This document shows, one piece after another, positions 2,002-26,731 of a stretch of 64,000 nt of DNA. The stretch spans positions 434,001-498,000 of the forward strand of contig NZ_JAJMPA010000001.1 of assembly GCF_020991475.1 (NCBI RefSeq), written 5' to 3'. Numbering within the stretch: the stretch's first letter is position 1; every line of letters begins with the position of its first letter. Under the pieces are notes generated by a model. That model saw nothing but the letters and a program-made list of their open reading frames with translations, was not told the origin of the DNA and did not search any database. The translations under genes were made by a program, and so were the position numbers. This DNA comes from Pedobacter sp. MC2016-14 (GTDB lineage Bacteria; Bacteroidota; Bacteroidia; Sphingobacteriales; Sphingobacteriaceae).

Positions 2002-2441
2002 TTGCTGGCGTTTTCTTTTATCCACTTAGCCCAATTGAAACCACGGGTGGCAAAGTAATGCATGCCGTAAAAGGGCTGGATATTGATTTACCTGCCTTTG
2101 GAGAATGTTATTTTTCTACAGCAGTTTTTCATGATCCAAAGGCATGGAAAAAACATACTCAAATGGTATGCAACCTTTTTGTACCGAAAGGGGCTGTGCG
2201 CTTTGTGTTCTATGACGACAGGGAAGGCAGTGCAGATTATGGAAAGATCCAAGAATTTGAGCTCTCCGAAAATGCTTATGGTCGCCTGGTTATCCATCCC
2301 GGCATATGGTTCGGCTTTGCCAGTCTTGCCGGTGATGGCGACAGCATTGTGATGAACGTAGCCAGCATGCCTCATAGCCGCGAAGAGAGCATGAGACTGG
2401 AACCCGGCAGCAATACTATTCCTTACCAGTGGAAATTTTAA
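1986..2441 (+). CDS. RmlC-like cupin, 4-keto-6-deoxysugar 3,5-epimerase family
   Basis: A 151-residue protein resembling dTDP-4-dehydrorhamnose 3,5-epimerase (RmlC) in its core: a KKHTQM stretch holding the candidate catalytic histidine, then VPKGAVRFVFYDDREGS, then an HPGIWFGF segment matching the RmlC PPG-hydrophobic turn. It is shorter than classical RmlC (about 180). Placed directly after rfbFG, it most likely epimerises the CDP-4-keto-6-deoxyhexose rather than a dTDP sugar; that substrate is inferred from context only. It overlaps rfbG by 16 bases and is followed 9 bases later by a reductase gene. Confidence 0.75.
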   Translation: MGEELIAGVFFYPLSPIETTGGKVMHAVKGLDIDLPAFGECYFSTAVFHDPKAWKKHTQMVCNLFVPKGAVRFVFYDDREGSADYGKIQEFELSENAYGRLVIHPGIWFGFASLAGDGDSIVMNVASMPHSREESMRLEPGSNTIPYQWKF

Positions 2442-2450
2442 CCCTTCGCG

Positions 2451-3302
2451 ATGAAAGTATTTTTAACAGGCGCTTCAGGCATATTGGGTACAGACCTGAT
2501 GAAGCAATTTCAGGAAAACAACCACGAAGTTTTGGGTTTTAGCTCTGCAGACATCAACCTTACTGATTTAAACGATGTAGGCCGAAAAATGGAGGCTTTT
2601 AAACCCGATCTGGTGATTCATAGCGCAGCAATGACAGCAGTGGACCTCTGTGAAACAGCGCCTGAACTGGCGTATGCCATTAACGTAAAAGGTACTGCCC
2701 ATATGGCTCTGGCAGCACGGGCAGCAGGTTCAAAACTGGTTTACATTAGCAGTTGCGGCGTGTATGGCAATGGCAAAACCACTCCCTACCACGAAATGGA
2801 TGCTACGCGTCCTTTAAATTACCACCACCAAACAAAACTGGAAGCTGAAAAGCAGGTAAAGGAAAACCATGAAAATTACCTGATTGTGAGGCCAGGCTGG
2901 TTATTTGGGGGCAGCAGGCAGCACAAGAAAAACTTTGTAGAAGCCCGCAGACAGGAGGCCCTTAGTAACCCAGTACTTAAAAGTGCTTTCGACAAACAGG
3001 GTTCGCCGACTTACACCAAAGATCTGGCCCAACAGCTATTGAGGGTACTTAATGACGGGCATACCGGGCTTTTTAATATGGTGAACGAAGGAGAGGCGAC
3101 CCGATTTAGTTATGTAGCGGAACTGATCCACGCCTTAGGCATGGATAACCGTGTAGAACCGGTAGATTCCAGTCGATTTGTGCGCGCCGCCAGAATGCCT
3201 GATAACGAAAGCCTGGAAAACAGGAACCTTAACCTCAACAACTGCAACCAGATGCGACATTGGAAACTTGCGTTGAGGGACTACATCAATACTAATTATT
3301 AA
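2451..3302 (+). CDS. RmlD-like NAD(P)-dependent sugar-nucleotide reductase
   Basis: Short-chain dehydrogenase of 283 residues, most like dTDP-4-dehydrorhamnose reductase (RmlD). The Rossmann motif GASGILG is at residues 7-13; HSAAMTAVD and YISSCGVYG follow in family order. It probably reduces the C4 keto group of the product of the preceding enzymes, giving a CDP-6-deoxyhexose. One oddity is directly visible: where RmlD has Y-x3-K, this protein reads PLNYHHQTKL, so a histidine sits four residues before the lysine and the tyrosine is displaced by one. It lies 9 bases after the epimerase and 3 before the next gene. Confidence 0.8.
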   Translation: MKVFLTGASGILGTDLMKQFQENNHEVLGFSSADINLTDLNDVGRKMEAFKPDLVIHSAAMTAVDLCETAPELAYAINVKGTAHMALAARAAGSKLVYISSCGVYGNGKTTPYHEMDATRPLNYHHQTKLEAEKQVKENHENYLIVRPGWLFGGSRQHKKNFVEARRQEALSNPVLKSAFDKQGSPTYTKDLAQQLLRVLNDGHTGLFNMVNEGEATRFSYVAELIHALGMDNRVEPVDSSRFVRAARMPDNESLENRNLNLNNCNQMRHWKLALRDYINTNY

Positions 3303-3305
3303 GCA

Positions 3306-4670
3306 ATGTATACAATACTGGGGGCAGGATTAAGCGGCATAAGCATAGCCGATCACCTTGCAAAAAAAAATATGCCATATGTAGTAATTGAAGCGAAAGC
3401 TCATGGCGGAGGTCACATTTACAGTGAGCTGGTAGATGGCTTTGTTTGGGATGAAGGGCCACATGTCTCTTTTACAGCACACGAATATGTAAAAACATGG
3501 TTGGAAAAGAATGCTGAAGATCAATATCTGGAATACGCCCCAAAACCGGCGAATTACCACCAGCAAAGCTGGATCCCACATCCTGCACAAGCCAATTTAT
3601 ATGCCATCCCGCAACAACTGAGGGAGCAATGTATTGCTGATTTGATTAGCGTGAGGGATGCATTTCCTGCAGATTTTAGCCCTAAAAACTACAAAGAATG
3701 GATAGACTACGCCTTTGGGGAGACTTTTGCCAATGTTTTTGCCGCAGTGTACACGAAAAAATACTGGACTATGGAGGCCGAACAGCTGTCGACAGACTGG
3801 ATTGGAAAACGGGTGTACTTTCCTGAAGTTAAAGACATGGTAGAAAGTGCACATGGTCCGTTGCAAAAGCAAACCCATTACATCTCTACCGTACGCTACC
3901 CTAGCCATGGCGGATTTTATACCTACGTTAAAAAAATAGAAAAGCAACTGAACATCCAATACAATAAGAAACTAAGGTTCATCTCCTTTGAGAAAAAGGA
4001 ACTGCAATTTTGTGATGGCAGTAGCGGTACCTACGAAAACTTGATTTCTACGCTTCCCTTACCCTTGCTGATTGCGAACAGTGATGCGCCGGAGCACATC
4101 AAAGTACAGGCGAAGAAATTAAAATGCTCACAGGTTTTGCTGATCAATGTAGTGGTAAACCACCCGGCACCGGTAGACAACCACTGGATTTATGTATACG
4201 ATGAGCAATATTACAGCACAAGGATCAATTTTACCGAATTGCTATCGCCCACTAACGGTGTTGAAGGCAAATCGGGCATTCAGGTGGAAGTATATTTTTC
4301 AGATTATCATCCACTTCAGCGGGCGGTAGAAGATATAGAATGCGAAGTACTGAACGAGCTGGTAGAAATGAAATTAATCCGTGCTGCAGAAGACATCTCC
4401 TCCTCACACCGCAAATGGATTGATTGGGCCAATGTGATTTTTGACACGCAACGCAGGGCTGCACAGGAACAAGTATTGAACTGGCTGGAAAGCAAAGGTT
4501 TGGCCAGAGAAGCGGATGACCTTTTGCCAATGACCGAGTGGACAGAAAAGGCGCCGCAGGCACTGGGCAGTATCATTTTAGCAGGCAGGTTTGCCCAATG
4601 GAAGTACTACTGGACGGATGACTGCATTATGCGTGGAAAATATATAAGCGAACAATTATGCCTGAAGTAA
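3306..4670 (+). CDS. FAD-dependent oxidoreductase/mutase-like protein of the UGM-amine oxidase fold
   Basis: A 454-residue flavoprotein. The dinucleotide-binding motif GAGLSGISIADHL is at the very N-terminus, followed by the acidic end of strand 2 (VVIEA) and the GGGHIYSE segment typical of UDP-galactopyranose mutase and protoporphyrinogen-oxidase-like enzymes. It is longer than the canonical mutase encoded at 9778-10890 and lacks that protein's AYGAHIFHT block, having GPHVSFTAHEY instead. A sugar-nucleotide isomerase or oxidase role in making one of the polymer's unusual sugars is likely but not proven. It overlaps the following glycosyltransferase gene by 13 bases. Confidence 0.65.
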   Translation: MYTILGAGLSGISIADHLAKKNMPYVVIEAKAHGGGHIYSELVDGFVWDEGPHVSFTAHEYVKTWLEKNAEDQYLEYAPKPANYHQQSWIPHPAQANLYAIPQQLREQCIADLISVRDAFPADFSPKNYKEWIDYAFGETFANVFAAVYTKKYWTMEAEQLSTDWIGKRVYFPEVKDMVESAHGPLQKQTHYISTVRYPSHGGFYTYVKKIEKQLNIQYNKKLRFISFEKKELQFCDGSSGTYENLISTLPLPLLIANSDAPEHIKVQAKKLKCSQVLLINVVVNHPAPVDNHWIYVYDEQYYSTRINFTELLSPTNGVEGKSGIQVEVYFSDYHPLQRAVEDIECEVLNELVEMKLIRAAEDISSSHRKWIDWANVIFDTQRRAAQEQVLNWLESKGLAREADDLLPMTEWTEKAPQALGSIILAGRFAQWKYYWTDDCIMRGKYISEQLCLK

Positions 4671-16381: not shown

Positions 16382-17638
16382 ATGAAATGGTTTAGACGTT
16401 TGTTAGCTACTGGCATACGTCACGAAATGGCGTACAGGGAGCGCCGCAAGGTTAAAGTAATTAATTTTGCAGGCCTTTTAGGAGGATTTTCATCTTTTAT
16501 ATTTCTGCTGAACAATAGTTTAGCAGGATATGGCATTCTTATGCTCTTAAATTGCATCACATTGATAGCAGGATTTGGCATTTTGTACTTTCATAAATGC
16601 GGCATTTACAAATACCCTCCTATAGTCGCCGGGTTCATCTATTCGCTCTGCTGCTCTGCAAGTGCCATGCTTTACGACAATAACATGGAATTTTACCTCC
16701 TGATTTTTATTGGTGTATATTTTATGCTCATGGATGATTTTAAGTTTAGCATCACCTTTAGTCTGTTCAATGCTACATTGTTCCTTTTCATTTATCATAA
16801 CCCAAACCTTTTTCCGGAATATCCATCAGTCTCTCCCACCCACCGCTTTATTGTGCTGTTTAACGGCATTGTACTATTCCTTTTCTTTCTTTACTTTTTT
16901 AAGAAGCAAAACCTTGCCTATCAGCAGAGAATTGAACTGCAGAACCAGGAGCTGAACCTGCAGAACTTAAATAAGGAAAAACTTTTTGCCATCATTGCGC
17001 ACGACATCCGCAGTCCGATTGCCAGCACCGGTAATGCCCTGCAGATGCTAAAACAGGATATCTTTAGCCCTGAAGAATTTGCAGAACTGAGCAGCAAACT
17101 CGCCGACCAGGTAAACAACGTGCAGGAAAACATTGACACCATTCTGCTATGGAGCCAAAGTCAGCTCAACGGCATTGAGGTTAAACCCAAAACTATTGAT
17201 CTATTGCCTGTGGTAACAAGAGTACTGGCTGGTGCAGAGATTGCCATGGCAGCGAAGTCCATTAAAGCCGACCTCACAGGCATCGTTCATACCGCCATAA
17301 CCGCAGATCCAAACCATTTGCAGCTTATTTTAAGAAACTTGCTGAGTAATGCCATCAAATTTAGCTATGAGGGTAGCAGCATTAAAATTTCTGCTGTCCG
17401 CAAATTGGATCAGACTGAAATTACCATACAGGATTTTGGAACAGGGATTTCTGAAGAAAACCTGAAATTAATCTTTGCCAACCACACTTTTTATTCCAGT
17501 CAGGGTACCAATAGAGAAAAAGGCACAGGTCTTGGTCTCAAGTTGTGTAAAGAGTTTGCCGAGAAAAACCATGGAAAGATGTGGGTAGAAAGCCTTCCCG
17601 GACTGGGCAGTTCTTTTACACTAAGCTTGCCAGGCTAG
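16382..17638 (+). CDS. Membrane sensor histidine kinase
   Basis: A 418-residue kinase. The start at 16382 gives MKWFRRLLATGIRHEM; upstream codons overlap the GT4 gene. Residues about 30-190 hold six hydrophobic segments with no large periplasmic loop, then a short coiled linker and the catalytic core: H-box IIAHDIRSP, N-box LRNLLSNAIKF, G1 DFGTGIS and G2 GTGLGLKLC. It should sense a membrane or intracellular signal and phosphorylate a response regulator that is not encoded next to it. Its own -7 box suggests separate transcription from the polysaccharide operon. Confidence 0.92.
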   Translation: MKWFRRLLATGIRHEMAYRERRKVKVINFAGLLGGFSSFIFLLNNSLAGYGILMLLNCITLIAGFGILYFHKCGIYKYPPIVAGFIYSLCCSASAMLYDNNMEFYLLIFIGVYFMLMDDFKFSITFSLFNATLFLFIYHNPNLFPEYPSVSPTHRFIVLFNGIVLFLFFLYFFKKQNLAYQQRIELQNQELNLQNLNKEKLFAIIAHDIRSPIASTGNALQMLKQDIFSPEEFAELSSKLADQVNNVQENIDTILLWSQSQLNGIEVKPKTIDLLPVVTRVLAGAEIAMAAKSIKADLTGIVHTAITADPNHLQLILRNLLSNAIKFSYEGSSIKISAVRKLDQTEITIQDFGTGISEENLKLIFANHTFYSSQGTNREKGTGLGLKLCKEFAEKNHGKMWVESLPGLGSSFTLSLPG

Positions 17639-17965
17639 TGCTTCGGGACTTCTCTATAACTGCTCTGGGGGAAGAAAAGGCAAACCTATACGTTAGTGGA
17701 TGACTAAGTTAGCAGGAAGTTTCAGCGTTCTTCGGCTGTCCTAGGGCTCTTCTATACCGCTTTGCCGAAGATGAACCCTAAACATCTTATCGTTCAGTTT
17801 ATATTTATCAAAATTCTTCTGGTCTTAACCTAACAGACACTACACAGCGGCTTTCTATAAGGGCTAATTTGTTCAGCAAGTCTGCAAATTAATTATTCAT
17901 TTTTATCCTTTTTACCGGATTTAATGCCGATTCCGTTTTTTGAAGTTCCGATTAATCTATCGGGC
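17639..17965 (+). other. Non-coding gap after the histidine kinase gene
   Basis: No open reading frame with a recognisable product was seen. Two perfect 7-bp inverted repeats are present: 17730-17736 with 17764-17770 (27-base loop) and 17865-17871 with 17885-17891. Neither is followed by a T-run, so neither is a convincing terminator. The region may be ancestral debris or a regulatory leader. Confidence 0.4.
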
Positions 17966-17973
17966 TATGTTTG
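17966..17973 (+). promoter_or_regulatory. -7 promoter box before the first DUF6266 gene
   Basis: TATGTTTG fits TAnnTTTG exactly, with a TTTG at 17939-17942 as possible -33 element (spacer 23, somewhat long). The predicted transcript would begin near 17980, downstream of the more upstream in-frame start at 17940, which supports translation from 18036. The same box, followed by TA, precedes the third DUF6266 gene. Confidence 0.5.
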
Positions 17974-17980
17974 TATCACA

Positions 17981-18011
17981 CCCGGATCATCAGTGGATGG
18001 AAAAATCCGGG
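17981..18011 (+). promoter_or_regulatory. Hairpin in the 5' leader of the first DUF6266 gene
   Basis: CCCGGAT (17981-17987) is perfectly complementary to ATCCGGG (18005-18011) with a 17-base loop. It would lie at the extreme 5' end of the mRNA and could stabilise it. No function is known. Confidence 0.35.
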
Positions 18012-18035
18012 GCAATCACAATTAAAGCAAACAAG

Positions 18036-18680
18036 ATGGCAATACTAAAAAATGGAATTTTCGGAGGATTTACCGGCAAGGTAGGAAATATGGTGGGTTA
18101 CGAGGCTGGAGGAAAGTTTTTGGTAAAAAGCGCACCAAAGAAATCTACGCTCCCCCCCACAGAAAAACAAATCAATCACCGTGCAAAGTTTAAGCTCATG
18201 ATTGGCTTTTTAACAATCATCAGGGATTTTATTTCTGTAGGCTTCAATACGGCGAAACGGGAACATACAGCAATGAACATGGCTATGAGGCACAATTTAA
18301 AAAATGCAGTGACCGGCTTGGGACCCGATTTTGCAATTGATTATCCCCTTTTAATGATCAGTATGGGCAACCTGCCAATTGCCAGCTTTCCGACTGCGGA
18401 ATATACCGGGGACAGCCAGCTGCAGTTTAGCTGGGTAAATGATCAAAGCAATCAACATTGCAGCTGGCTGGATGAGTTGAATATAATGGTTTACAATGAA
18501 GCTAAAAACGAATTCTTAATATGGAAGGGAGAGGCCAGGCGCAAAGATCAAATTTGCAAACTTAAACTGCCAGAAGATTTTATTGGAGATGAATTGCATT
18601 GCTACTTCTATTTTATCAATGAAAACGGAATGACCAGCAACAGTATGTACGCAGGGCTGGTTCAATTAAAAAACATTTAA
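18036..18680 (+). CDS. DUF6266 family protein (first copy)
   Basis: A 214-residue protein of unknown function typical of Bacteroidota. The start at 18036 gives MAILKNGIFGGFTGKVGNMVGYE, the family N-terminus rich in glycine. A TEKQxxxRxKFKLMIGFL block follows (about residues 48-66), then a helical region, and the C-terminal half looks beta-rich (MVYNEAKNEFLIWKGEARR, then a CYFYFINENGMTSNSMYAGLV ending that recurs in the other copies). No signal peptide or membrane helix is seen. It is followed 10 bases later by a second, diverged copy. Function is not known. Confidence 0.8.
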   Translation: MAILKNGIFGGFTGKVGNMVGYEAGGKFLVKSAPKKSTLPPTEKQINHRAKFKLMIGFLTIIRDFISVGFNTAKREHTAMNMAMRHNLKNAVTGLGPDFAIDYPLLMISMGNLPIASFPTAEYTGDSQLQFSWVNDQSNQHCSWLDELNIMVYNEAKNEFLIWKGEARRKDQICKLKLPEDFIGDELHCYFYFINENGMTSNSMYAGLVQLKNI

Positions 18681-18690
18681 ACTTAATGAT

Positions 18691-19326
18691 ATGGCGATTT
18701 TAAAACATTCAGATCAAGGTTCGATAACCGGAGCTATTGGCCCGGTAACAGTTTACCAGTCTAAAGGACAATCCATTGTCCGGAAACGACGAAACATCGG
18801 GGGTAAACCTTCCACTGAAAAACAACTGAGCAGGCAACAGCGCATAAAACTGGTTGTGGATTTTTTGCGGCCGATAAAAGAATTTACTTATGCAGGCTTT
18901 AGGGATGTAGATAGAGCAGCCGGCGTTTCCATCTACAATGTAGTGACCTCAGAGCTGCTACGTAATGCCATTACAGGAACCTATCCTGCACAGGAAATTG
19001 ATTACAAAAATGTGATTTTGAGTAAAGGAGCTTTGAAAACAGCCATTGGCGCCAGCGTTTCTGCCATAGATGGCGAGCTGATATTTCACTGGATCAGGAC
19101 AGCAGGCGACTTCAATTCTACTGACCGTGTGATGCTGATGGCCTATTGCCCGGAATTAAAAGAAGCTGCTTACGAAATAAGTGGTGCGAAGAGAATGGTG
19201 GGTACAGCTATATTAACATTAGAAAAATCATGGCAGGGAAAATATGTAGAGACTTACATCTCGTTTAGGTCTGAAGGAAAAAAAATATCGGCAAATAGTT
19301 TTTATACAGGAAATTTGAAGATATAA
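18691..19326 (+). CDS. DUF6266 family protein (second copy, diverged)
   Basis: A 211-residue relative of the preceding gene product. It keeps MAILK, the TGAIGPVTVYQSKGQSIVR segment, the PSTEKQLSRQQRIKLVVDFL block and the SANSFYTGNLKI ending, but has lost the GGFxGK glycines of the other two copies. It starts 10 bases after the first copy and is probably co-transcribed. No terminator with a convincing T-run follows. Function unknown. Confidence 0.75.
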   Translation: MAILKHSDQGSITGAIGPVTVYQSKGQSIVRKRRNIGGKPSTEKQLSRQQRIKLVVDFLRPIKEFTYAGFRDVDRAAGVSIYNVVTSELLRNAITGTYPAQEIDYKNVILSKGALKTAIGASVSAIDGELIFHWIRTAGDFNSTDRVMLMAYCPELKEAAYEISGAKRMVGTAILTLEKSWQGKYVETYISFRSEGKKISANSFYTGNLKI

Positions 19327-19455
19327 ACGAACGATCAGGACTGATTTTGCCATAAACAAGAAGAAAAAATAGCGCATTAAGCCAGGATTGCTGAAAAAGA
19401 AATTAACATTTTAAGATTTCCTGAGATTTAATATGCTGGAGAACTGAACGCTAAG

Positions 19456-19471
19456 CTTCACATATGTGAAG
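19456..19471. promoter_or_regulatory. 16-bp perfect palindrome, possible operator
   Basis: CTTCACATATGTGAAG reads identically on both strands. The arms TTCAC/GTGAA have the size of a dimeric regulator site. A Crp/Fnr-type regulator is encoded about 0.6 kb away, but any link is only a suggestion. Confidence 0.35.
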
Positions 19472-19725
19472 GAAACGTAATCAGGCGCAAATTTATTTTC
19501 TTTTGGATTTTACAGCCCTAAGATATTATATGTTCTTTAAGATTAACATCGGGATTTTTTTATTTTCTCATTCGCAAATTTTCGCATTAATTAAGAGGTA
19601 AAAAACATAAAATGTTGATAAGTTACAGGGCAGATCCCGTATAAAAAACATGCATTTTCCAGAAAATCTGTAGCTTTAAGAATGGAGTGACAAGAGCAAT
19701 TAACCGGTTGTCAACCAGCTTAGAA

Positions 19726-19731
19726 AGGAGG
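19726..19731 (+). promoter_or_regulatory. Strong Shine-Dalgarno site (AGGAGG)
   Basis: AGGAGG lies 8 bases before the ATG at 19740. Such a site is unusual in Bacteroidota, where most genes here lack one, and it supports the small gene downstream as real and well translated. Confidence 0.6.
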
Positions 19732-19739
19732 TATTTGAA

Positions 19740-19952
19740 ATGACAAGGAGAGAAAAAACAAGAAGATTAGTGATTGATGTTAGAGACGTAATGGGCATGC
19801 TCCGTTTGGAAATATCCGCTTCCTATAAGGCACTTCAGAACATGAAGGCATTTTTTAACAAGTCCAAACACCAGTATATAGGCCTGAGAGATTTTTCTGA
19901 GTACACAGGATTAGCCCTCGACGACATTGAAGCCTACATTGATGCCAATTAA
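19740..19952 (+). CDS. Small protein, possible helix-turn-helix fold
   Basis: A 70-residue, basic protein that I do not recognise with certainty. The arrangement VRDVMGMLRLEISASYKALQNMK, then HQYIGLRDFSEYTGLALDDIEAYI, looks like two helical hairpins, the second resembling the small Bacteroidota DNA-binding or excisionase-like proteins that begin with a DVM helix. Reality of the gene is supported by AGGAGG at 8 bases spacing and by an intrinsic terminator downstream (20087-20116). No phage integrase is near. A regulatory role is a guess. Confidence 0.6.
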   Translation: MTRREKTRRLVIDVRDVMGMLRLEISASYKALQNMKAFFNKSKHQYIGLRDFSEYTGLALDDIEAYIDAN

Positions 19953-20078
19953 AACCGATTATCAACTAAACATTAAGCAAAATTATGCAGTACAAGTCAA
20001 GCTATTTCCTTTCGATGATCATTGTTCAAGTCTGGTGGTTATTAAGACAAAAACAAATTTACTGGCTTTAATTAAAAC

Positions 20079-20723
20079 TCATTTGGGACCAGCCTTTAGG
20101 TGGCTGGTTCTTTTTTCTTTATATAACCTACTCAGAGATCCGGGCGTAATGTGAAGAAAACTGGCTATGATCCATTTATGTAGCTGTATCGAAAAAGACT
20201 GGAACATATCGACATATTGTGTCTCGAAATCCGCGAGTTTTTCTTTTCCTGGTTTCCTGGTCATCATATCTTTAAGCGTATGTTTCTGCGACTTTTTAGC
20301 AATTATCCTGTTCCATAAAGGAATAACTTCAGGACAATTTGTGCTGATGCGCTCATAAACAGCATAGCTAATTTCAATCACATGGGTGTTGCGACCGGCT
20401 ACCAGACTGTATAAAGAGGCGTCATTACCTAACCAACCAGCAGGCACGATGACTACTTCGCCAGCAACAAAAATCAAGTGAACATCGTCGGTTTCATGGA
20501 AAGCCACAACACAACCCTCATTTACAAACCAGCATTTGCGGCAAATATCTCCATAAGGATGCAACATAGATGCTTGCTCACTCAAATACCCCACTCCTCC
20601 ACGTCTTAATTCCTGCTCGGCAGCCAGGTCAAACGCCTTCAATAATCTGAGTTCATTTATAAATTGATCTTCAAAATCCTGCCTTATTTTGGGTACCCTG
20701 GTTAATGAGTGCGCTATGGTCAT
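20079..20723 (-). CDS. Crp/Fnr-type regulator (cyclic-nucleotide-binding fold)
   Basis: A 214-residue protein with an N-terminal beta-roll (about residues 50-130, containing VNEGCVVAFH and IFVAGEVVIVPAGWLG) and a C-terminal helical segment ending in IIASFLHITPGSLSRLYKEK, which resembles the Crp winged helix recognition region. Cysteines in DICRKC occur within the roll but not in an Fnr cluster pattern. It is transcribed alone towards the small gene, and its last codons form the terminator hairpin on the opposite strand. Targets and ligand are unknown. Confidence 0.75.
   Translation of the reverse strand: MTIAHSLTRVPKIRQDFEDQFINELRLLKAFDLAAEQELRRGGVGYLSEQASMLHPYGDICRKCWFVNEGCVVAFHETDDVHLIFVAGEVVIVPAGWLGNDASLYSLVAGRNTHVIEISYAVYERISTNCPEVIPLWNRIIAKKSQKHTLKDMMTRKPGKEKLADFETQYVDMFQSFSIQLHKWIIASFLHITPGSLSRLYKEKRTSHLKAGPK
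20087..20116 (+). terminator. Intrinsic terminator for the small gene
   Basis: GACCAGCC (20087-20094) pairs with GGCTGGTT (20102-20109) over a 7-base loop and is followed by TTTTTT. The T-run is only on the + strand. The stem lies within the last codons of the convergent Crp/Fnr-type gene. Confidence 0.75.
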
Positions 20724-20749
20724 TTTCTTTTACAATATTAAGTTAATGG

Positions 20750-20757
20750 CAAAGCTA
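20750..20757 (-). promoter_or_regulatory. -7 promoter box of the Crp/Fnr-type gene
   Basis: On the - strand this reads TAGCTTTG, an exact TAnnTTTG match, 26 bases before the start codon. A TTTG at 20777-20774 could be the -33 element with a short 16-base spacer. Confidence 0.5.
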
Positions 20758-21033
20758 CAGTTTGGTAGTTCAACAAAACTTCACAAATGTTAAAGAAATA
20801 GAAAAATCGCGTTTTTAGCTCCTTCATCATGACAACCAGCGGAAAAAATACCAACGATTATTGGTTCAATATTTTACACAGGACTACTTTTTTTGATAGT
20901 TTTTGACAAAAAATACTAGCAATTCCTTGCTTTACAAGGCATTAAAAAAGCTACCCTTATGTTTGTACTGTTGGTTAAGCAAACCTGTTGAGCGGCCAAC
21001 TTTAACAATTATTTTACACTTAATCTCAAAATT
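20758..21033 (+). other. Intergenic region before the third DUF6266 gene
   Basis: With the promoter boxes it separates two divergent genes by about 310 bases. No gene was recognised. It includes the + strand -7 box at 20958-20965 and a short GTTGG/CCAAC inverted repeat (20970-20974 with 20996-21000) in the predicted leader. Confidence 0.4.
20958..20965 (+). promoter_or_regulatory. -7 promoter box before the third DUF6266 gene
   Basis: TATGTTTG, an exact TAnnTTTG match, is 68 bases before the ATG at 21034. The first DUF6266 gene has the same octamer, also followed by TA, 62 bases before its ATG, suggesting common regulation or a shared origin. Confidence 0.5.
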
Positions 21034-21678
21034 ATGGGAACACAACCAAAAGGAGCCTTTGGAGGCTTCATCGGAAAAGCAGGCCCGCTTATCGGCTACA
21101 ACCTTAAGGGGCAAAATGTGATTACCGGCTTGCACAACAAATCAAGCAAGCCCGCCACACAAAAACAAAAAGATCAACGCTACAAATTTGGAATGATCAC
21201 TTCATTCCTGGCGCACATTGGCGACCTGATCGAAATCGGCTTTGCGAGAAAAGCAAAAGCAACAGAGACGGCAATGAATGCTGCTGTTTCTTATAACCTA
21301 ACACATGCTACAATGGGGCTCTCACCCAATTTTGAGATTGACTTTACCACGCTCAAAACCAGCTTAGGTTCAGTTACCCAGGCAAAAAACCTGCTGGTTG
21401 TACCGACAGCGGGTAACAACATCAATTTTACCTGGGATTTGGCCAGCGGCGGCCCCAGCACCCAAAGCGATCCTACTGATCAGCTGATGTTGCTGATCTA
21501 CAATCCAGAACTGGACGAATTCCTGCCCGTAGTTGGCGCAGCACCACGTTCAGCTTTAACTTACAGTCTGCATGTACCATCAGATTTTTCTGGAGCAGAA
21601 ATCCATTGTTACTGTAGTTTTGTAGGAAAAGAGGGTCGTGTGAGCGACAGTATTTACCGAAACGTAGTACTCCTGTAA
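21034..21678 (+). CDS. DUF6266 family protein (third copy)
   Basis: A 214-residue member with the full family N-terminus GAFGGFIGKAGPLIGYNLKGQ, the KPATQKQKDQRYKFGMITSFL block and the C-terminal MLLIYNPELDEFLPVVGAAPRS and SDSIYRNVVLL elements. It is closer in motif content to the first copy than to the second. A long perfect stem follows its stop codon, yet three genes on the same strand continue closely behind. No function is known for the family; here it heads a run that looks like a lysis module. Confidence 0.8.
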   Translation: MGTQPKGAFGGFIGKAGPLIGYNLKGQNVITGLHNKSSKPATQKQKDQRYKFGMITSFLAHIGDLIEIGFARKAKATETAMNAAVSYNLTHATMGLSPNFEIDFTTLKTSLGSVTQAKNLLVVPTAGNNINFTWDLASGGPSTQSDPTDQLMLLIYNPELDEFLPVVGAAPRSALTYSLHVPSDFSGAEIHCYCSFVGKEGRVSDSIYRNVVLL

Positions 21679-21689
21679 ATTAACCCGGC

Positions 21690-21735
21690 AATGCACACCT
21701 TGTTGAACAGGACCAGCAGGTGTGCATTCACTTTT
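21690..21735 (+). terminator. Stem-loop after the third DUF6266 gene, weak terminator or processing site
   Basis: AATGCACACCT (21690-21700) is perfectly complementary to AGGTGTGCATT (21718-21728), an 11-bp stem with a 17-base loop. Only TTTT follows, after CAC, so termination may be partial. It would reduce rather than abolish expression of the membrane protein, hydrolase and lipoprotein genes downstream. Confidence 0.5.
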
Positions 21736-21754
21736 AACATTAACACAGACGATT

Positions 21755-22126
21755 ATGACAAGTTTAGCAATTAAGTTCCCCCGGAATTGGGGCTTCAACG
21801 GTTACACAGGGCATTTGGCCTTCGGCTTTATTCTTTTCCTATACCTGGCTGTCAGGTTTCAAATGAACAGCACTGATCCCGCTGCCGTAGCAGGGATAGA
21901 AAGTATTTGGCTATTGATAGCCTGCAGCGGCCTTGTATTTATGGCAGTAATTGCCTTATGCAAAACTCTATTAACAAAATTCTGGTCGGCCTTAGACTTG
22001 CCTGATTTAGAATTTATGGTTTTACATTTTAAAAGTTTAGAATTATGGAAACAACTAAGTTTTTACTTGTCTTTATTTGGCTTGCTGCTGCTGGCGGCAA
22101 CAGGCTGCCTGATGGCAATTTGCTAG
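21755..22126 (+). CDS. Small three-helix membrane protein, holin-like
   Basis: A 123-residue protein of unknown family with three hydrophobic segments (about residues 20-36, 48-73 and 101-123) and a short N-terminal soluble part. The ATG at 21755 was chosen because upstream in-frame codons lie in the preceding stem-loop. The last 82 bases overlap the start of the hydrolase gene in another frame. Size, topology and overlap with a peptidoglycan hydrolase gene are like those of phage holins, but no holin family motif was recognised, so this is inference from context. Confidence 0.6.
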   Translation: MTSLAIKFPRNWGFNGYTGHLAFGFILFLYLAVRFQMNSTDPAAVAGIESIWLLIACSGLVFMAVIALCKTLLTKFWSALDLPDLEFMVLHFKSLELWKQLSFYLSLFGLLLLAATGCLMAIC

Positions 22127-22551
22127 CAGGGATTGCTAAAGCAGAAATCGGTGTACGCGAGCTGAGCGGACACAATGACGGGCAAAGGGTTGCAGCGTAC
22201 CAAAAAGCTGGTGATTGTACTAAGGGTGATCCCTGGTGTGCTGCCTTTATCAGCTGGGTTTTTAAACAAGCAGGATATCCAGCTCCACGAACGGGCTGGT
22301 CTCCCAATTTATTTCCATCTTCCAGAGTAGTAAAAGTGCCTGAAAGGGGCACCGTACTTGGAATTTATTTCCCGGCCTTAAAGCGAATTGCACATTGCGG
22401 ACTGGTAACAGGGGTACACAACAACTGGGTATATTCTGTAGAAGGAAATACGAATGTGGCAGGCAGCAGAGAGGGTGATGGTGTGTATGCACGCATACGC
22501 CACAGGAAAAGCATCAGCCGATATGCGGATTGGATGAAAAAGAAAATTTAA
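22045..22551 (+). CDS. NlpC/P60-CHAP-like cysteine peptidoglycan hydrolase (endolysin-like)
   Basis: A 168-residue protein. After a short hydrophobic N-terminus (FLLVFIWLAAAGG), which may act as a signal or signal-arrest sequence, comes the catalytic domain: IAKAEIGVRELSG, then GDPWCAAFISWVFKQAG with candidate nucleophile Cys65, AHCGLV with His117, and VEGNTN with Glu133 or Asn135 as third residue. This motif set belongs to the TIGR02594-type CHAP-like hydrolases that cut peptide bonds in the cell wall. It begins inside the holin-like gene and is followed after 10 bases by a lipoprotein gene. Confidence 0.82.
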   Translation: METTKFLLVFIWLAAAGGNRLPDGNLLAGIAKAEIGVRELSGHNDGQRVAAYQKAGDCTKGDPWCAAFISWVFKQAGYPAPRTGWSPNLFPSSRVVKVPERGTVLGIYFPALKRIAHCGLVTGVHNNWVYSVEGNTNVAGSREGDGVYARIRHRKSISRYADWMKKKI

Positions 22552-22561
22552 CGACGCGTTT

Positions 22562-23071
22562 ATGGAATTATTAAAATTTAATGCCACCTGTTTGGCGACA
22601 CTGACTTGCATGGGTTGCAGTTCGGTTAAAAATCAAGAATTGAGCACTGCTCAGCAAAAAAGGAAGTTGCAACTGCAGATGATTTCGAAATATCTTAGTG
22701 TAAATGAAGACAGCACCAGTAACAGCAGCTTATTTCTGAAACACGATTCGGCAGGAACTGAATTTACGGTAGAGATCTGGCCAAGCGGGCCCTTCGATTT
22801 CTCGCCTTATAAAGGCTTTGAAGGTACAGCTCAAAAAATTATTTACCATGGAAAAACCGCACAGCTTTTTAACACTTTCCAAAATCAGGAGCAAAATGGG
22901 CACAGCAGGAGCATGGAAATGAACAGTATCAAAACTAAACTTGAAGAAAGCAGGGAGGAAAAACAATTGAATAAAACACTGGAGGTTAAACGCAGCAGCA
23001 GCTGGAAACGGTGGCTCCTGCTTTCCATAGGTTTGCTGTTTGCCGCGCTTGCTTATAAATTTTTGAAATAA
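22562..23071 (+). CDS. Lipoprotein with C-terminal membrane helix, unimolecular-spanin-like
   Basis: A 169-residue protein with an N-terminal hydrophobic stretch ending in TCMGCSS, a plausible though non-canonical lipobox with Cys19 as lipidated residue. The middle is hydrophilic, with a charged, probably helical part (residues about 118-148), and the end is a single membrane helix (about 150-167, WLLLSIGLLFAALAYKFL). An outer-membrane lipid anchor plus a C-terminal inner-membrane helix in one chain is the topology of phage u-spanins such as T1 gp11. No sequence similarity was recognised. It converges with the next gene, overlapping it by 19 bases. Confidence 0.6.
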   Translation: MELLKFNATCLATLTCMGCSSVKNQELSTAQQKRKLQLQMISKYLSVNEDSTSNSSLFLKHDSAGTEFTVEIWPSGPFDFSPYKGFEGTAQKIIYHGKTAQLFNTFQNQEQNGHSRSMEMNSIKTKLEESREEKQLNKTLEVKRSSSWKRWLLLSIGLLFAALAYKFLK

Positions 23072-24042
23072 GCCGGTTTATCTTTATCAAACAGCAGCTT
23101 CAGCTTTTCGGAGGTAAGGGGTTTTGTGACAAAATCTTTCACAAAGCTGAAAGCCCGGGCTCTTGAACGCTCTAACGGATCTATAGAGGAAGAAACAATA
23201 ATAACGTCTACCAGGATCCCTTGCTCCTGCATCATGCCCAGGAATGCCCAGCCATCAATTTCGGGCATATGCAAGTCAAGGAACAGGAGGTCCGGGTTTT
23301 GTGCTTTAACGTAGTCAAATGCCTTTTTAGGCTCGTCAAAAGTAACGAGGCATTTTTCTACATCTAAGCCAGAAAGCAACATTTCATGCATCCTGTTTGT
23401 TAGCTTGTCATCGTCAAGCAATACAATATGCTTACTATCCGGATTAACAGACTCTGGCTGAAAGAATACGATGTGCTCGTTATTGTGCAGGAGGTCATTG
23501 AGCAGTTTGATAATTTCATCCAGCTTCTCTGCCTGTGCATTAATGTCGGACAGCAAACCGCTAAGTCTAATTACATCGTAGGCTTCCAGCTTTTTATTTT
23601 TGATGCTGCCGGATAAACTGAGGATATTGGAAATTGGCGCCCTTAATTCGTGCGAAGCCACATGTGAATATTCATTGAGTAGTTTGAGCTGTCGCTTAAT
23701 TCTATTGCTGCTCACCACTGTACAGCTCACATACTGAACTTCATTTTGAATAAAAATTGGTGTGAAAGTGACCTGAAATACAACATCTCCTTCTTCGGCC
23801 AGCGCCACCTTCTTTTCCAGGCTAAAACACTGTCCGGCGAAGCAATTTTCTACCCTGCTGATAAAGTTTTCGCGGTAACGTTGTGTAAGCAATTCCTCAA
23901 TTTGTTGCCCCAGAGCTAAGTTGCCCGATACAAAAACAGATAGCTTATCCATTGGATGAACAGAAAAAGAAGCAAGCTGAAATTTTTTATCGATCAAAAA
24001 ATAGGAGCTGTTGTAGCTGTCGCATACAAGGTTAGTTCTCAT
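23053..24042 (-). CDS. PAS-like/HisKA/REC protein lacking an ATPase domain
   Basis: A 329-residue cytoplasmic signalling protein. Residues 1-115 look like a PAS sensor fold; 120-190 form a HisKA dimerisation helix pair with the histidine in YSHVASHELRAPISN; 200-325 is a receiver domain with the acidic pocket LLDDDK, phospho-acceptor aspartate in LFLDLHMPEIDG, switch serine in VSSS and the lysine in TKPL. The HATPase_c domain normally between HisKA and REC is absent: after LLNDLLHNNEH the sequence passes directly into the receiver. It therefore cannot autophosphorylate and probably receives phosphate from another kinase, or binds a partner as a scaffold. Confidence 0.85.
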   Translation of the reverse strand: MRTNLVCDSYNSSYFLIDKKFQLASFSVHPMDKLSVFVSGNLALGQQIEELLTQRYRENFISRVENCFAGQCFSLEKKVALAEEGDVVFQVTFTPIFIQNEVQYVSCTVVSSNRIKRQLKLLNEYSHVASHELRAPISNILSLSGSIKNKKLEAYDVIRLSGLLSDINAQAEKLDEIIKLLNDLLHNNEHIVFFQPESVNPDSKHIVLLDDDKLTNRMHEMLLSGLDVEKCLVTFDEPKKAFDYVKAQNPDLLFLDLHMPEIDGWAFLGMMQEQGILVDVIIVSSSIDPLERSRARAFSFVKDFVTKPLTSEKLKLLFDKDKPAYFKNL

Positions 24043-24176
24043 ACAGGGCGTTTTATTGACATTTATTTTTGCTTTTGTACAGTTTATGGGTTAATTTATA
24101 GCAAAAACCAAATCTCGTTATTTTTAGTATATAGCTTAAGATGGGGGTTTTGGAGCTTAAATTGCAAGATTAAGGT

Positions 24177-24184
24177 TACATTTC
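24177..24184 (+). promoter_or_regulatory. Possible -7 promoter box of the XRE regulator gene
   Basis: TACATTTC matches TAnnTTTG at 7 of 8 positions, 42 bases before the ATG at 24227, with TTTG at 24149-24152. An exact match TATTTTTG also occurs further upstream at 24064-24071. Confidence 0.3.
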
Positions 24185-24226
24185 ACCGTTAATCTCGTAT
24201 ACAAATCAACAAATTTAAAACTACTT

Positions 24227-25042
24227 ATGCAAGAAATACTGTCCAAAAAGGCGATCGGCGAGAGAATCAAAAAACTTAGAGTTGAAAATGGACTTTCACA
24301 GTCTTTTTTAGCCAATATCCTTAAGCTTTCCAGAAGCAATTATTCGCAAATTGAAATCGGGAACCAATTTCCTTCCTATCAAACGCTTCTGGCCATATCA
24401 AAATATTTTCAGAAAAGTTACGAATGGCTGTTGCACGGAATAGGTGAACATGAAGTCCTGATACCAATTGATTTATTAAAAAAAACGCCTGAACTTCAAC
24501 AGCCCACTATCGTGCTGAACAAGGATGGTTATGCCGCCACCTTATTCGTTAAGGCAGAGGATACCAAAAAATATGCAAAGTTATTAAATGATGAAGCCTT
24601 TATAGGCAGTTTAGCCCCACTGGAAGTCCCACTGCAGGCCGGGGAAAGATACCGAAGGGCTTTTAGTGTAAAGAACAAAGTATTACCTGCCCCACTTTTG
24701 CAAAATGACCTGCTGATTGCTGAGCATGTTTCAACCTATGCAGAGGTTGTAGTAAACAATTTATACATCATTATTACGAAGAAAGAACTGATTGTAGCCA
24801 GACTGCTTTCTGTAGCCCTCCCTTTTAAGACCCTGTTTTGCGCGCTTAATGAAAACGAAGCTAGTTTTGAAGTAAATACAGATGATGTAAAGGAACTGTG
24901 GGAAATTACCGGAAAATACACCAGCAGCCTAAACCCTACTGCCACTGAGTTAGAAAAGAACCTTAAGAAGGTCGAAAATGCACTGAAAGCACTTGAGCAA
25001 GACCTCTTAAGGATCAAATCTATTCAACTGAGTAAAAACTAA
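24227..25042 (+). CDS. XRE-family regulator with degenerate LexA/S24-like C-terminal domain
   Basis: A 271-residue protein. The N-terminal Cro/C1-type helix-turn-helix is at about residues 10-65 (IKKLRVENGLSQSFLANIL, SRSNYSQIEIG). The C-terminal part (about 130-210) follows the LexA/S24 plan, but where peptidases have GDSM it reads KNKVLPAPLLQNDLLIAEHV, and the catalytic lysine region reads IVARL. Both catalytic residues therefore appear lost and self-cleavage is not expected. A lysine- and glutamate-rich coiled helix ends the protein. Such regulators are common in Bacteroidota; the target is unknown. It converges with the symporter gene, 6 bases apart. Confidence 0.88.
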   Translation: MQEILSKKAIGERIKKLRVENGLSQSFLANILKLSRSNYSQIEIGNQFPSYQTLLAISKYFQKSYEWLLHGIGEHEVLIPIDLLKKTPELQQPTIVLNKDGYAATLFVKAEDTKKYAKLLNDEAFIGSLAPLEVPLQAGERYRRAFSVKNKVLPAPLLQNDLLIAEHVSTYAEVVVNNLYIIITKKELIVARLLSVALPFKTLFCALNENEASFEVNTDDVKELWEITGKYTSSLNPTATELEKNLKKVENALKALEQDLLRIKSIQLSKN

Positions 25043-25048
25043 CCGCAA

Positions 25049-26731
25049 CTAAAACACCACTTTTTTAGACGCCCGCAGCGGGATCAAAGCACTTAGTAAA
25101 ATAAGGGTAGCAATCCCGATGACCATATTGGTTCCTTTTGCCGTAAATAAACAAAGGATGTACAGCAGAAATGCGATAAAGGCCAGGGAAAAAGAAATCA
25201 CTTGCAGACCAAATTTATTTTGCCTTTTAATTTCCAGCGCTTCCTTTTCATCAACCCCCTGAAAACTGGTTTTGCGAATGGCTTTACGCTCCTGCAAATC
25301 AAGGTACTCTTTGCTGATCCAACCTTTAGAAGCTGCATAGACTTCGTAAGCAAGCAATAATATACAGGGCAGGATAACACCAAGTAACATTTCATTGGCA
25401 CGGCTAAGTTTGAAATGCATTAGCACGGGCAGTAGGATTTTGAAAAGCAGATTGACCCCCAAACTGATGGTGGTGATGTAAATGGTGGCCTTACCTGTAA
25501 TGCGTTTGGAAAATAAGGCCCAGATAGGTGGTGCAAGCAATGGTCCGCCGGTAATGGCACCCACACTTAACGTAAATTCTACTATGCCACCAATGTAGGG
25601 TACAATGAGGGCAATTACAATCATGCCGAGCCCGAAAGCCCAGGAAGAGCGGCGGGCGATTTTCATGAGCTTTTCATCCGAAGCAGCAGGGTTGATGCTC
25701 CCTTTATAAATATCGTTGGTAAAGACTGCTGATACCACATTTAAAGCGGTATTTGCAGAAGCAGAGGTAGAGAAATACATGCCGGTAAGAATTAATCCCA
25801 TCAAACCTGCCGGTAAAACCTGCTTGCAAACCATTAAGTAGGCATTTTCTGTGGCCAAGCCAGTTAATCCGGGATTAATGGTTTGGTAAATCATGGGTGG
25901 CAACATCCACAGTACCGGACTTAGAATGTAAAGGCCCGCGAAAAGGAAAGCTACTTTAGCGGCAGATTTTGGTGTATCTACACTGGTATACCTTTGTACA
26001 AAGGTCCAGTTGCCGCCGATGTAAAAAATGTGGTACAAGGCAAAAGCCAGGATAAAGCCCCAGGTGTATTCACCATTTACAAGCTGAAAGAAATCATCCG
26101 GCATTTTATTCAATACGTTTTGTACACCTCCGGCTTCGCCAAAGGCTAATGGAATGATAAGCAATACCGAGGCGGTAAGGATAACAAATTGCAGGATATC
26201 AGTAACCATCACAGCCCAAAGACCACCAACAGCGGTATAGGCAATCATAAAGAAACCCAGCACTATGGTAACCGGAATTAAAGGAAACTCTAAGGAGGAA
26301 CCCACCAATCGCGCTACGGAATATAATACCGAACCTTTGATAAACAACGACACCAACATAAAGATGTAGATAAAGCTTTTTTGAACTTTAGGACCAAGGC
26401 GGTCTTTGATAAATTCTGCTGCGGTAAGGTTACCTGTAGCTTTCCATTTTGGCGCAAGGTAAATGCCGGTAACCAGGCCGCCGATACACATGGTCCACTG
26501 AATGGTGACCGCCACCCAGCCGTACTTGTAAGCAATAGAACCCCAGGCCACAAAAGTACCCGCAGAGAAAAAACTCATGAAAAGCGACAAACCACCAATA
26601 AACCATGGTACGGCTTCGCCACCGGCAAAAAATGACTTTAAATTACGCCCTGTGCGGGAGAACAGTAAACCGATGATCATGATGAACACCGAGAAAACGA
26701 CAATAACGGAGGTATCTATGATAGAATTCAT
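25049..26731 (-). CDS. Sodium:solute symporter (SSS family)
   Basis: A 560-residue inner-membrane transporter with about 13-14 hydrophobic helices. FIGGLSLFMSFFSAGTFVAWGS near the N-terminus and the AYTAVGGLWAVMVTDILQ block are hallmarks of the SSS family (sodium-coupled sugar, sialic acid or solute uptake). The start at 26731 was chosen because the upstream gene's TAA ends one base earlier, giving a TAATATG junction and probable coupling. As the last gene of the polysaccharide utilisation locus it probably imports the released, processed sugar. The precise substrate cannot be read. Confidence 0.92.
   Translation of the reverse strand: MNSIIDTSVIVVFSVFIMIIGLLFSRTGRNLKSFFAGGEAVPWFIGGLSLFMSFFSAGTFVAWGSIAYKYGWVAVTIQWTMCIGGLVTGIYLAPKWKATGNLTAAEFIKDRLGPKVQKSFIYIFMLVSLFIKGSVLYSVARLVGSSLEFPLIPVTIVLGFFMIAYTAVGGLWAVMVTDILQFVILTASVLLIIPLAFGEAGGVQNVLNKMPDDFFQLVNGEYTWGFILAFALYHIFYIGGNWTFVQRYTSVDTPKSAAKVAFLFAGLYILSPVLWMLPPMIYQTINPGLTGLATENAYLMVCKQVLPAGLMGLILTGMYFSTSASANTALNVVSAVFTNDIYKGSINPAASDEKLMKIARRSSWAFGLGMIVIALIVPYIGGIVEFTLSVGAITGGPLLAPPIWALFSKRITGKATIYITTISLGVNLLFKILLPVLMHFKLSRANEMLLGVILPCILLLAYEVYAASKGWISKEYLDLQERKAIRKTSFQGVDEKEALEIKRQNKFGLQVISFSLAFIAFLLYILCLFTAKGTNMVIGIATLILLSALIPLRASKKVVF

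What the first reader, a model, noticed from the sequence alone, without database searches (positions are those of the whole stretch)
21034..23071. Phage-like lysis cassette without a phage, headed by a DUF6266 gene
Four consecutive + strand genes give a DUF6266 protein, a three-helix small membrane protein, a CHAP/NlpC-like wall hydrolase starting 82 bases inside it, and a lipoprotein with C-terminal membrane helix. The last three match holin, endolysin and spanin in order, size, topology and overlap. There is no integrase, capsid or tail gene in the window. This could be a domesticated lysis module that releases a product (DUF6266 proteins themselves are candidates), or a remnant.
Basis: partly seen in the sequence, partly recalled or inferred. 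Interest (0 to 1): 0.72.

Follow-up and report, generated by a model that had tools for sequence, protein, structure and literature searches.

The report
Phage-derived lysis module releasing DUF6266
Pedobacter-like bacteria keep several copies of a cell-bursting gene set borrowed from phages, nearly always placed right behind a gene for an unstudied protein, DUF6266, which looks like the product that the burst lets out.

Summary
In detail: DUF6266 (21034-21678), a holin-like protein (21755-22126), a CHAP hydrolase starting 82 nt inside it (22045-22551), and a lipoprotein with a C-terminal membrane helix (22562-23071). It is not a chance remnant. The genome has six such modules. Of 80 named hydrolase loci (75 titled Pedobacter), 69 have DUF6266 within 420 nt before the holin and 74 hold one in the locus. 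The 82-nt overlap is exact in 76 of 77 pairs. All four genes are under purifying selection and diverge in step. The hydrolases form one clade apart from phage-contig homologues; 55 of 80 phage contigs carry holin and hydrolase, none DUF6266. So phage lysis genes were captured, domesticated and multiplied as a chromosomal module resembling a type 10 secretion system. In another order of the class, DUF6266 also stands before other, partly unrelated lysis genes (5 of 78 fetched non-congeneric loci), which argues for a functional link. DUF6266 shows no signal peptide, so lysis is its plausible exit. A stem-loop between DUF6266 and holin recurs (52 of 66), perhaps damping lysis. Not shown: lysis, release, or what DUF6266 does; only 6 of 26 DUF6266 genes here stand before lysis genes.

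The parts
21034..21678 (+). DUF6266 protein, 214 aa, candidate cargo; N-terminal part of unknown fold plus C-terminal FN3-like domain; no signal peptide seen
   Evidence: PF19781 123.8 bits; model pLDDT 93.4; FN3 fold for about residues 112-214; no strongly hydrophobic N-terminus in 65 of 65 linked relatives after trimming to the likely start, 64 of 65 before
21690..21728 (.). 11-bp stem-loop between DUF6266 and the holin gene, possible attenuator or terminator
   Evidence: similar stem after 52 of 66 linked DUF6266 genes, against 25 of 53 unlinked ones, 103 of 470 other genes and 12 of 76 coding controls; not listed by the simple terminator scan
21755..22126 (+). holin-like membrane protein, 123 aa, about three membrane helices by eye
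   Evidence: family found in 21 of 21 loci by an iterated profile; homologues before the endolysin in 55 of 80 phage contigs; no Pfam or PHROG match
22045..22126 (+). 82-nt overlap, read in two frames by holin and hydrolase
   Evidence: exact in 76 of 77 chromosomal pairs and 20 of 55 phage-contig pairs
22045..22551 (+). CHAP-type endolysin, 168 aa; C65, H117, E133 and N135 invariant
22562..23071 (+). u-spanin-like lipoprotein, 169 aa: lipobox C19 and C-terminal membrane helix
   Evidence: found after the hydrolase by profile or topology in 62 of 80 loci; topology alone 54 of 80 against 19 of 674 control frames
17940..18680 (+). second DUF6266 gene nearby, not directly before lysis genes; likely start about 18036
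   Evidence: PF19781 122.1 bits
18691..19326 (+). third DUF6266 gene nearby, not directly before lysis genes
   Evidence: PF19781 111.8 bits
20079..20723 (-). Crp-like regulator divergent from the module; possible regulator, weak evidence
   Evidence: cNMP_binding E 0.024, below cut-off; a cluster of genes that I take for Crp-like by eye occurs in the fetched flanks of 16 of 80 loci

Best explanation
This is a phage lysis cassette (holin, endolysin, single-molecule spanin) that an ancestor of these Pedobacter-like bacteria captured beside a DUF6266 gene. It has been kept, duplicated and spread as a four-gene chromosomal module. It most likely works like a lytic type 10 secretion system. Under some regulated cue, perhaps in few cells, DUF6266 accumulates in the cytoplasm; the holin then opens the inner membrane, the CHAP enzyme cuts the wall, the spanin joins the two membranes, and the cell bursts and frees DUF6266 as a public good, weapon or structural protein. 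A stem-loop between DUF6266 and holin may keep lysis expression low until needed. Shown by sequence: the four genes, order, overlap, selection, shared history, phage relationship, no recognised virion or integrase genes around apart from two single tail-type matches. Inferred: lysis, release, regulation, cargo role.
For: Six modules in this genome. Order DUF6266-holin-hydrolase in 21 of 21 loci; in 80 named loci DUF6266 ends within 420 nt before the holin in 69 and is somewhere in the locus in 74. Exact 82-nt overlap in 76 of 77 pairs. dN/dS medians 0.11, 0.25, 0.18 and 0.31 (DUF6266, holin, hydrolase, lipoprotein), Mantel r 0.54-0.71 between genes. Hydrolase at E 1e-15 or better in 26 of 39 congeners with DUF6266 and 1 of 14 without (p 1.2e-4; counted by hand, test); the exception has another protein in the slot. 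Phage contigs: holin and hydrolase in 55 of 80, DUF6266 in 0 of 80. 83 of 84 chromosomal hydrolases form one clade. DUF6266 before other lysis genes in 5 of 78 non-congeneric loci. No hydrophobic N-terminus in DUF6266. Lytic precedent: PMC10847048 (two sections read).
Against: Only 6 of 26 DUF6266 genes here stand directly before lysis genes, and 73 of 78 non-congeneric loci show no recognised lysis gene, so DUF6266 has a life outside lysis. 18 of 80 loci show no spanin. The hydrolase has a hydrophobic N-terminus in 75 of 76, so it may reach the periplasm without a hole. In the own-genome tree the linked DUF6266 genes are not one clade (3 changes, at least 2 forced). Mantel values and clustering partly reflect common descent; one dN/dS pair exceeds 1 in each of DUF6266, holin and lipoprotein. 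No lysis, expression or release data exist.
Confidence: 0.6

Rival explanations
1. Non-lytic holin-dependent export: the same parts leak out the hydrolase and DUF6266 without killing the cell, as reported for Salmonella T10SS.
For: Non-lytic T10SS is argued in PMC13284979 (passages); spanin is not found in 18 of 80 loci.
Against: Most modules (62 of 80) keep a spanin, whose proposed role is membrane fusion and lysis. The same passages say that no lysis was detected in a Serratia strain that has spanins, so this argument is not strong.
Confidence: 0.15
2. A prophage remnant: DUF6266 is a phage structural or tail gene left together with the neighbouring lysis genes.
For: Holin and hydrolase are phage-related. 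One 8-kb phage record has a full-length DUF6266 relative (hhalign E 2e-15; Pfam 23.1 bits, just under the cut-off of 23.4) with a rolling-circle Rep and a CHAP enzyme. FN3 folds occur in phage tail proteins. Among 113 flanking proteins one matches 'minor tail protein with lysin activity' and one 'tail fiber protein'.
Against: The window's DUF6266 has no match in 50,697 phage records at E 0.01, and DUF6266 is absent from 80 of 80 hydrolase-bearing viral contigs. No capsid, portal, terminase or integrase family in 60 of 61 PHROG families listed for the 113 flanking proteins. Purifying selection and repeated copies.
Confidence: 0.1
3. DUF6266 is a regulator or chaperone of lysis (for instance a lysis timer) and not the cargo.
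For: It is upstream and close (median gap 73 nt); FN3 domains often bind proteins (recalled).
Against: It also stands before holins and endolysins that the window-derived profiles do not match and mostly occurs without any recognised lysis gene.
Confidence: 0.15
4. A wall-hydrolase toxin with immunity genes (the membrane protein or lipoprotein) used in competition, like T6SS amidase effectors.
For: Small CHAP/NlpC-like hydrolase followed by a faster-changing lipoprotein (dN/dS 0.31).
Against: The lipoprotein has a C-terminal membrane helix, and the holin/hydrolase pair with the same overlap exists in viral contigs.
Confidence: 0.05

Closest known systems
Type 10 secretion systems (Serratia ChiWXYZ, Yersinia entomophaga YenLC, Salmonella ChiH/ChiP; as described in PMC10847048 and PMC13284979)
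   Same: Holin, wall hydrolase and (mostly) spanin outside a phage, next to a protein that shows no signal peptide; phage-derived
   Different: Other phylum; spanin is a single lipoprotein with a membrane helix instead of an Rz/Rz1 pair; up to six copies in one genome; cargo candidate is the unstudied DUF6266; secretion not shown
Lysis genes of viral contigs in IMG/VR (L184-L263)
   Same: Homologous holin followed by homologous endolysin in 55 of 80, with the same 82-nt overlap in 20 of 55
   Different: No DUF6266, a spanin matching the window's profile in 1 of 80, separate hydrolase clade
Colicin operons (recalled, not from a call)
   Same: Product gene followed by a stem-loop and then a lysis gene
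   Different: No immunity gene recognised, full holin-endolysin-spanin set, no killing activity known
DUF6266 + holin + transglycosylase-type endolysin + u-spanin sets (L264, L315; L318 with a different small membrane protein)
   Same: Same functional order
   Different: Holin (PF05105 in L264) and endolysin (phrog_873 in L264) are of other families than in the window

Membership tests
Type 10 secretion system | Holin next to a peptidoglycan hydrolase | tested here: met
   (by homology and topology, not activity)
Type 10 secretion system | Cluster lies outside a phage | tested here: met
   No capsid, portal, terminase or integrase family in the window (complete to about 9e-11) or among 113 flanking proteins (60 of 61 families shown); two single tail-type matches there
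Type 10 secretion system | Spanin (present in some, not all) | tested here: met
   62 of 80 loci by profile or topology
Type 10 secretion system | Coupled cargo protein exported by the system | not testable with these tools
   DUF6266 linkage is shown; export needs an experiment
u-spanin | Lipobox and C-terminal membrane helix in one protein | tested here: met
   16 of 16 with the Cys; both features in 54 of 80 loci
u-spanin | Fuses inner and outer membranes | not testable with these tools
   -
CHAP endolysin | Cys, His and Asn/Glu catalytic residues (roles recalled) | tested here: met
   C65, H117, E133, N135 invariant in 21 of 21
CHAP endolysin | Pfam CHAP curated cut-off | tested here: not met
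   21.2 bits against 26; PHROG endolysin 6e-17
DUF6266 (PF19781) | Score over curated cut-off | tested here: met
   123.8 against 23.4 bits
Active or recent prophage | Integrase, capsid, portal or terminase genes nearby | tested here: not met
   many PHROG families have no description, so unrecognised phage genes remain possible
FN3 domain | FN3 fold in the C-terminal part of DUF6266 | tested here: met
   5kf4_A Z 8.8, rmsd 2.3 over 98 residues; by sequence only one weak hit, an FN3 chain at E 0.066
T6SS amidase effector with immunity | Linked secretion genes and protective partner | not tested
   -

The most novel reading that the evidence does not exclude
Bacteroidota possess a widespread, repeatedly invented, population-level release system in which cells burst themselves to set free DUF6266-type proteins (or, in the same slot, a second 250-aa family). 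DUF6266 would be a new class of released effector or particle-forming protein, possibly taken from small phages that replicate by rolling circle.
Probability: 0.3. Interest if true: 0.85.

Novelty: new variant of a known kind. Interest (0 to 1): 0.62.

Why it matters
It would extend lysis-cassette release (T10SS) to Bacteroidota, where the searches made here found no report, with several modules in one genome. It gives a first functional lead for DUF6266, a name that no paper in the held library contains. It also offers a clean test: delete one module in a laboratory Pedobacter and look at lysis and the supernatant.

Tried and rejected
Chance overlap and remnant: rejected by conservation and selection. 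Phage nearby: no capsid, portal, terminase or integrase recognised. Recent insertion with a clean empty site: in 13 relatives with the neighbouring response-regulator gene (L363-L375) no module lies in the roughly 1.5 kb fetched on either side, but the other flank differs too, so the locus is rearranged and no boundary could be defined. Fold of the DUF6266 N-terminal 112 residues: no PDB match (best E 2.9; best Z 2.2, rmsd 3.8 over 54 residues among 65 chains); this does not show a new fold. PDB sequence search with the hydrolase profile: nothing at E 0.01. Rfam at gathering scores: nothing at 17000-25100. Plasmids: no match to the L264 DUF6266. Kin of the 8-kb phage L265: none found in viral contigs by its Rep and one DUF6266-like protein, nor in phage records. 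Homology between DUF6266 and the alternative slot protein: not supported (hhalign E 0.2).

Weak spots of my own counts. The order of the non-congeneric genomes is unnamed; I take it for Bacteroidales. My frame caller is a greedy ORF picker, not a gene finder. The profiles were iterated on the same 21 loci, and most of these are the same places as loci among the 80, so the two counts are not independent. One search returned the best 80 of 230 relatives and the best 80 of 533. The 78 non-congeneric loci are those I chose to fetch, include several per genome and some cut by contig ends; only lysis types resembling known ones could be recognised, and the transglycosylase profile was built from three of them. 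The Fisher table was counted by hand. One of six rows in the profile of the alternative slot family was read out of frame (L100). In the hydrolase tree 3 of 80 genome loci and 1 of 80 viral loci dropped out because their matched stretch was under 110 aa or missing; it is a FastTree with local supports. The viral-contig scan for DUF6266 used patterns from other lineages. For the flank scans I gave 113 of the 126 proteins listed. One search measures hydrophobicity and is no signal-peptide predictor.

Full report
What is there. The four genes are real and at the stated places. DUF6266 scores 123.8 bits on PF19781 (cut-off 23.4). The hydrolase is a CHAP-type endolysin (PHROG endolysin 6e-17; Pfam CHAP 21.2 bits, below its cut-off of 26) whose Cys, His, Glu and Asn are invariant in 21 of 21 relatives. 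The membrane protein matches no Pfam or PHROG family but belongs to a conserved family. The lipoprotein has an invariant lipobox Cys in 16 of 16 relatives and a C-terminal membrane helix, the layout of a u-spanin.

It is a repeated unit. Six full hydrolase genes and six lipoprotein genes lie at the same six places, each set headed by a DUF6266 and holin gene. In one of them (L065) a further DUF6266 gene sits between hydrolase and lipoprotein and another behind the lipoprotein. Among 148 genomes searched, 56 including the own one have a hydrolase match; 51 of these reach E 1e-15 and all 51 are in the own genus.

It is conserved. In 20 loci picked among the best hydrolase matches plus the window, DUF6266, holin and hydrolase come in this order in 21 of 21 and the lipoprotein is found in 16 of 21. 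A scan of named genomes found 230 relatives and kept the best 80, of which 75 are titled Pedobacter. 74 of 80 loci hold DUF6266, holin and hydrolase; 56 of 80 hold all four by profile. By profile or topology the spanin is there in 62 of 80; by topology alone in 54 of 80, against 19 of 674 control frames. The slot directly before the holin (frame ending within 420 nt) is DUF6266 in 69 loci, a weak DUF6266 match in 1, another protein family in 2, a contig end in 1, something else in 5 (DUF6266 lies further upstream in 4 of these), and 2 loci have no holin hit. The hydrolase ATG lies exactly 82 nt before the holin stop in 76 of 77 pairs.

It is under selection and shares one history. Nei-Gojobori dN/dS medians for pairs with dS 0.1-1.2 are 0.11 (DUF6266, 35 pairs), 0.25 (holin without the overlap, 84), 0.18 (hydrolase without the overlap, 42) and 0.31 (lipoprotein, 34); one pair exceeds 1 in each of DUF6266, holin and lipoprotein, and the pairs are not independent. 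Distance matrices of the genes agree (Mantel r 0.54-0.71; 0 of 500 permutations as high for every gene pair). DUF6266 goes with the hydrolase (0.60) about as well as the holin does (0.66) (all). In the own genome the six linked DUF6266 genes fall within one 11-member part of the tree (support 93/92) but are not one clade; the label needs 3 changes against 5.5 in shuffles, with 5 of 500 as low. In 53 congeners the hydrolase is present at E 1e-15 in 26 of 39 with DUF6266 and 1 of 14 without (p 1.2e-4; counted by hand, test). The exception, L377, has the other slot family before its holin.

It came from phages. Viral contigs hold hydrolase homologues (up to 49% identical in the best segment); 55 of 80 have both holin and hydrolase, the 82-nt overlap occurs in 20 of 55 pairs, and 0 of 80 have DUF6266. 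So the Pedobacter-type modules most simply go back to one capture, and the other case is a separate one.

Surroundings. In the window no capsid, portal, terminase, tail or integrase family was listed. Among 113 flanking proteins of the 20 loci, 60 of 61 PHROG families were shown: none is a capsid, portal, terminase or integrase; one protein matches 'minor tail protein with lysin activity' and one 'tail fiber protein', and four transposase families and two UmuD-like ones have one match each. Pfam shows regulators of the AraC and LytTR kinds most often. In 13 of 13 relatives with the neighbouring response-regulator gene, the module is not beside it.

The link recurs. Among 78 fetched loci with DUF6266 from outside the genus, five have recognised lysis genes right behind it. 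L264 and L315 have a holin (PF05105 in L264), a transglycosylase-type endolysin (phrog_873 in L264) and a u-spanin; L318 has a different small membrane protein with the same endolysin and spanin types; L317 and L331, both from one genome, have a CHAP hydrolase that the window's profile finds, starting 79 nt (L317) inside a membrane protein that resembles the window's holin by eye only. L264 comes from a viral-contig collection and carries an integrase; the other four lie in genome assemblies of another order of the class, unnamed and probably Bacteroidales. The majority, 73 of 78, have no recognised lysis gene.

DUF6266 itself. The model is confident (pLDDT 93.4). About residues 112-214 have an FN3 fold (5kf4_A Z 8.8, rmsd 2.3, 98 residues). 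The N-terminal 112 residues, modelled alone (pLDDT 88.8), found no match. After trimming to the likely start, none of 65 linked proteins has a strongly hydrophobic N-terminus, whereas 75 of 76 hydrolases and 52 of 56 lipoproteins do. One 8-kb phage record has a full-length relative (hhalign E 2e-15; Pfam just under cut-off) with a rolling-circle Rep and a CHAP enzyme. No paper in the held library uses the name DUF6266.

A possible control element. Between DUF6266 and holin lies a stem-loop (21690-21728, 11 pairs). Similar stems occur in 4 of 6 own modules (0.8 expected) and in 52 of 67 others (5.6 expected). In a second count the rates were 52 of 66 linked DUF6266 genes, 34 of these with a T-rich tail; 25 of 53 unlinked ones; 31 of 56 module ends; 6 of 20 ends without spanin; 103 of 470 other genes; 12 of 76 coding controls. 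The simple terminator scan does not list the window's stem-loop. An attenuator that lets DUF6266 be made in excess over lysis proteins is a reading, not a result.

Comparison. Holin/endolysin/spanin clusters outside phages are what Sitsel et al. call T10SS and show to be lytic in Yersinia (PMC10847048, sections Main and Discussion read); a 2026 paper argues for non-lytic action in Salmonella (PMC13284979, passages only). The module here fits the gene content but not yet the function. The literature searches made (listings, besides passages of two papers and two sections of one) showed no report of such a system in Bacteroidota; the listings are ranked and cut, and most subscription papers are not held.

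Verdict. A domesticated, multi-copy, phage-derived lysis module of Pedobacter-like bacteria, very likely functional; release of DUF6266 is the best but unproven reason for its existence.

Noticed in passing
Function unknown.
   Followed up: partly
L265 (OP209177.1), 403-3499: 8-kb phage record with three DUF6266-like genes (the first by eye only), a G2P-type Rep and a CHAP enzyme, and no other obvious capsid gene.
   Followed up: partly
L115:2160-2918, L149:4670-5428, L377:about 2755-3513: A different 250-aa family takes the DUF6266 slot before the holin; similar proteins stand near DUF6266 in L088, L099 and L100.
   Followed up: partly
L104-L183 flanks: Recurrent neighbours, named by eye or by weak Pfam matches: small helix-turn-helix gene in 34 of 80 loci, LytTR-type membrane protein in 20, Crp-like regulator in 16, GDP-mannose-dehydratase-like gene in 10.
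   Followed up: no
L084, L085, L087, L089, L309, L315 upstream of DUF6266: A small conserved gene with the motif NSGKPL..PCPNCF (DUF6943, name recalled) lies before DUF6266 in unrelated families.
   Followed up: no
window 23053-25042: In 13 relatives the response-regulator gene lies without the module nearby, in 11 of them close to genes that I read by eye as ribosomal proteins L21 and L27; the locus is rearranged in this genome.
   Followed up: partly
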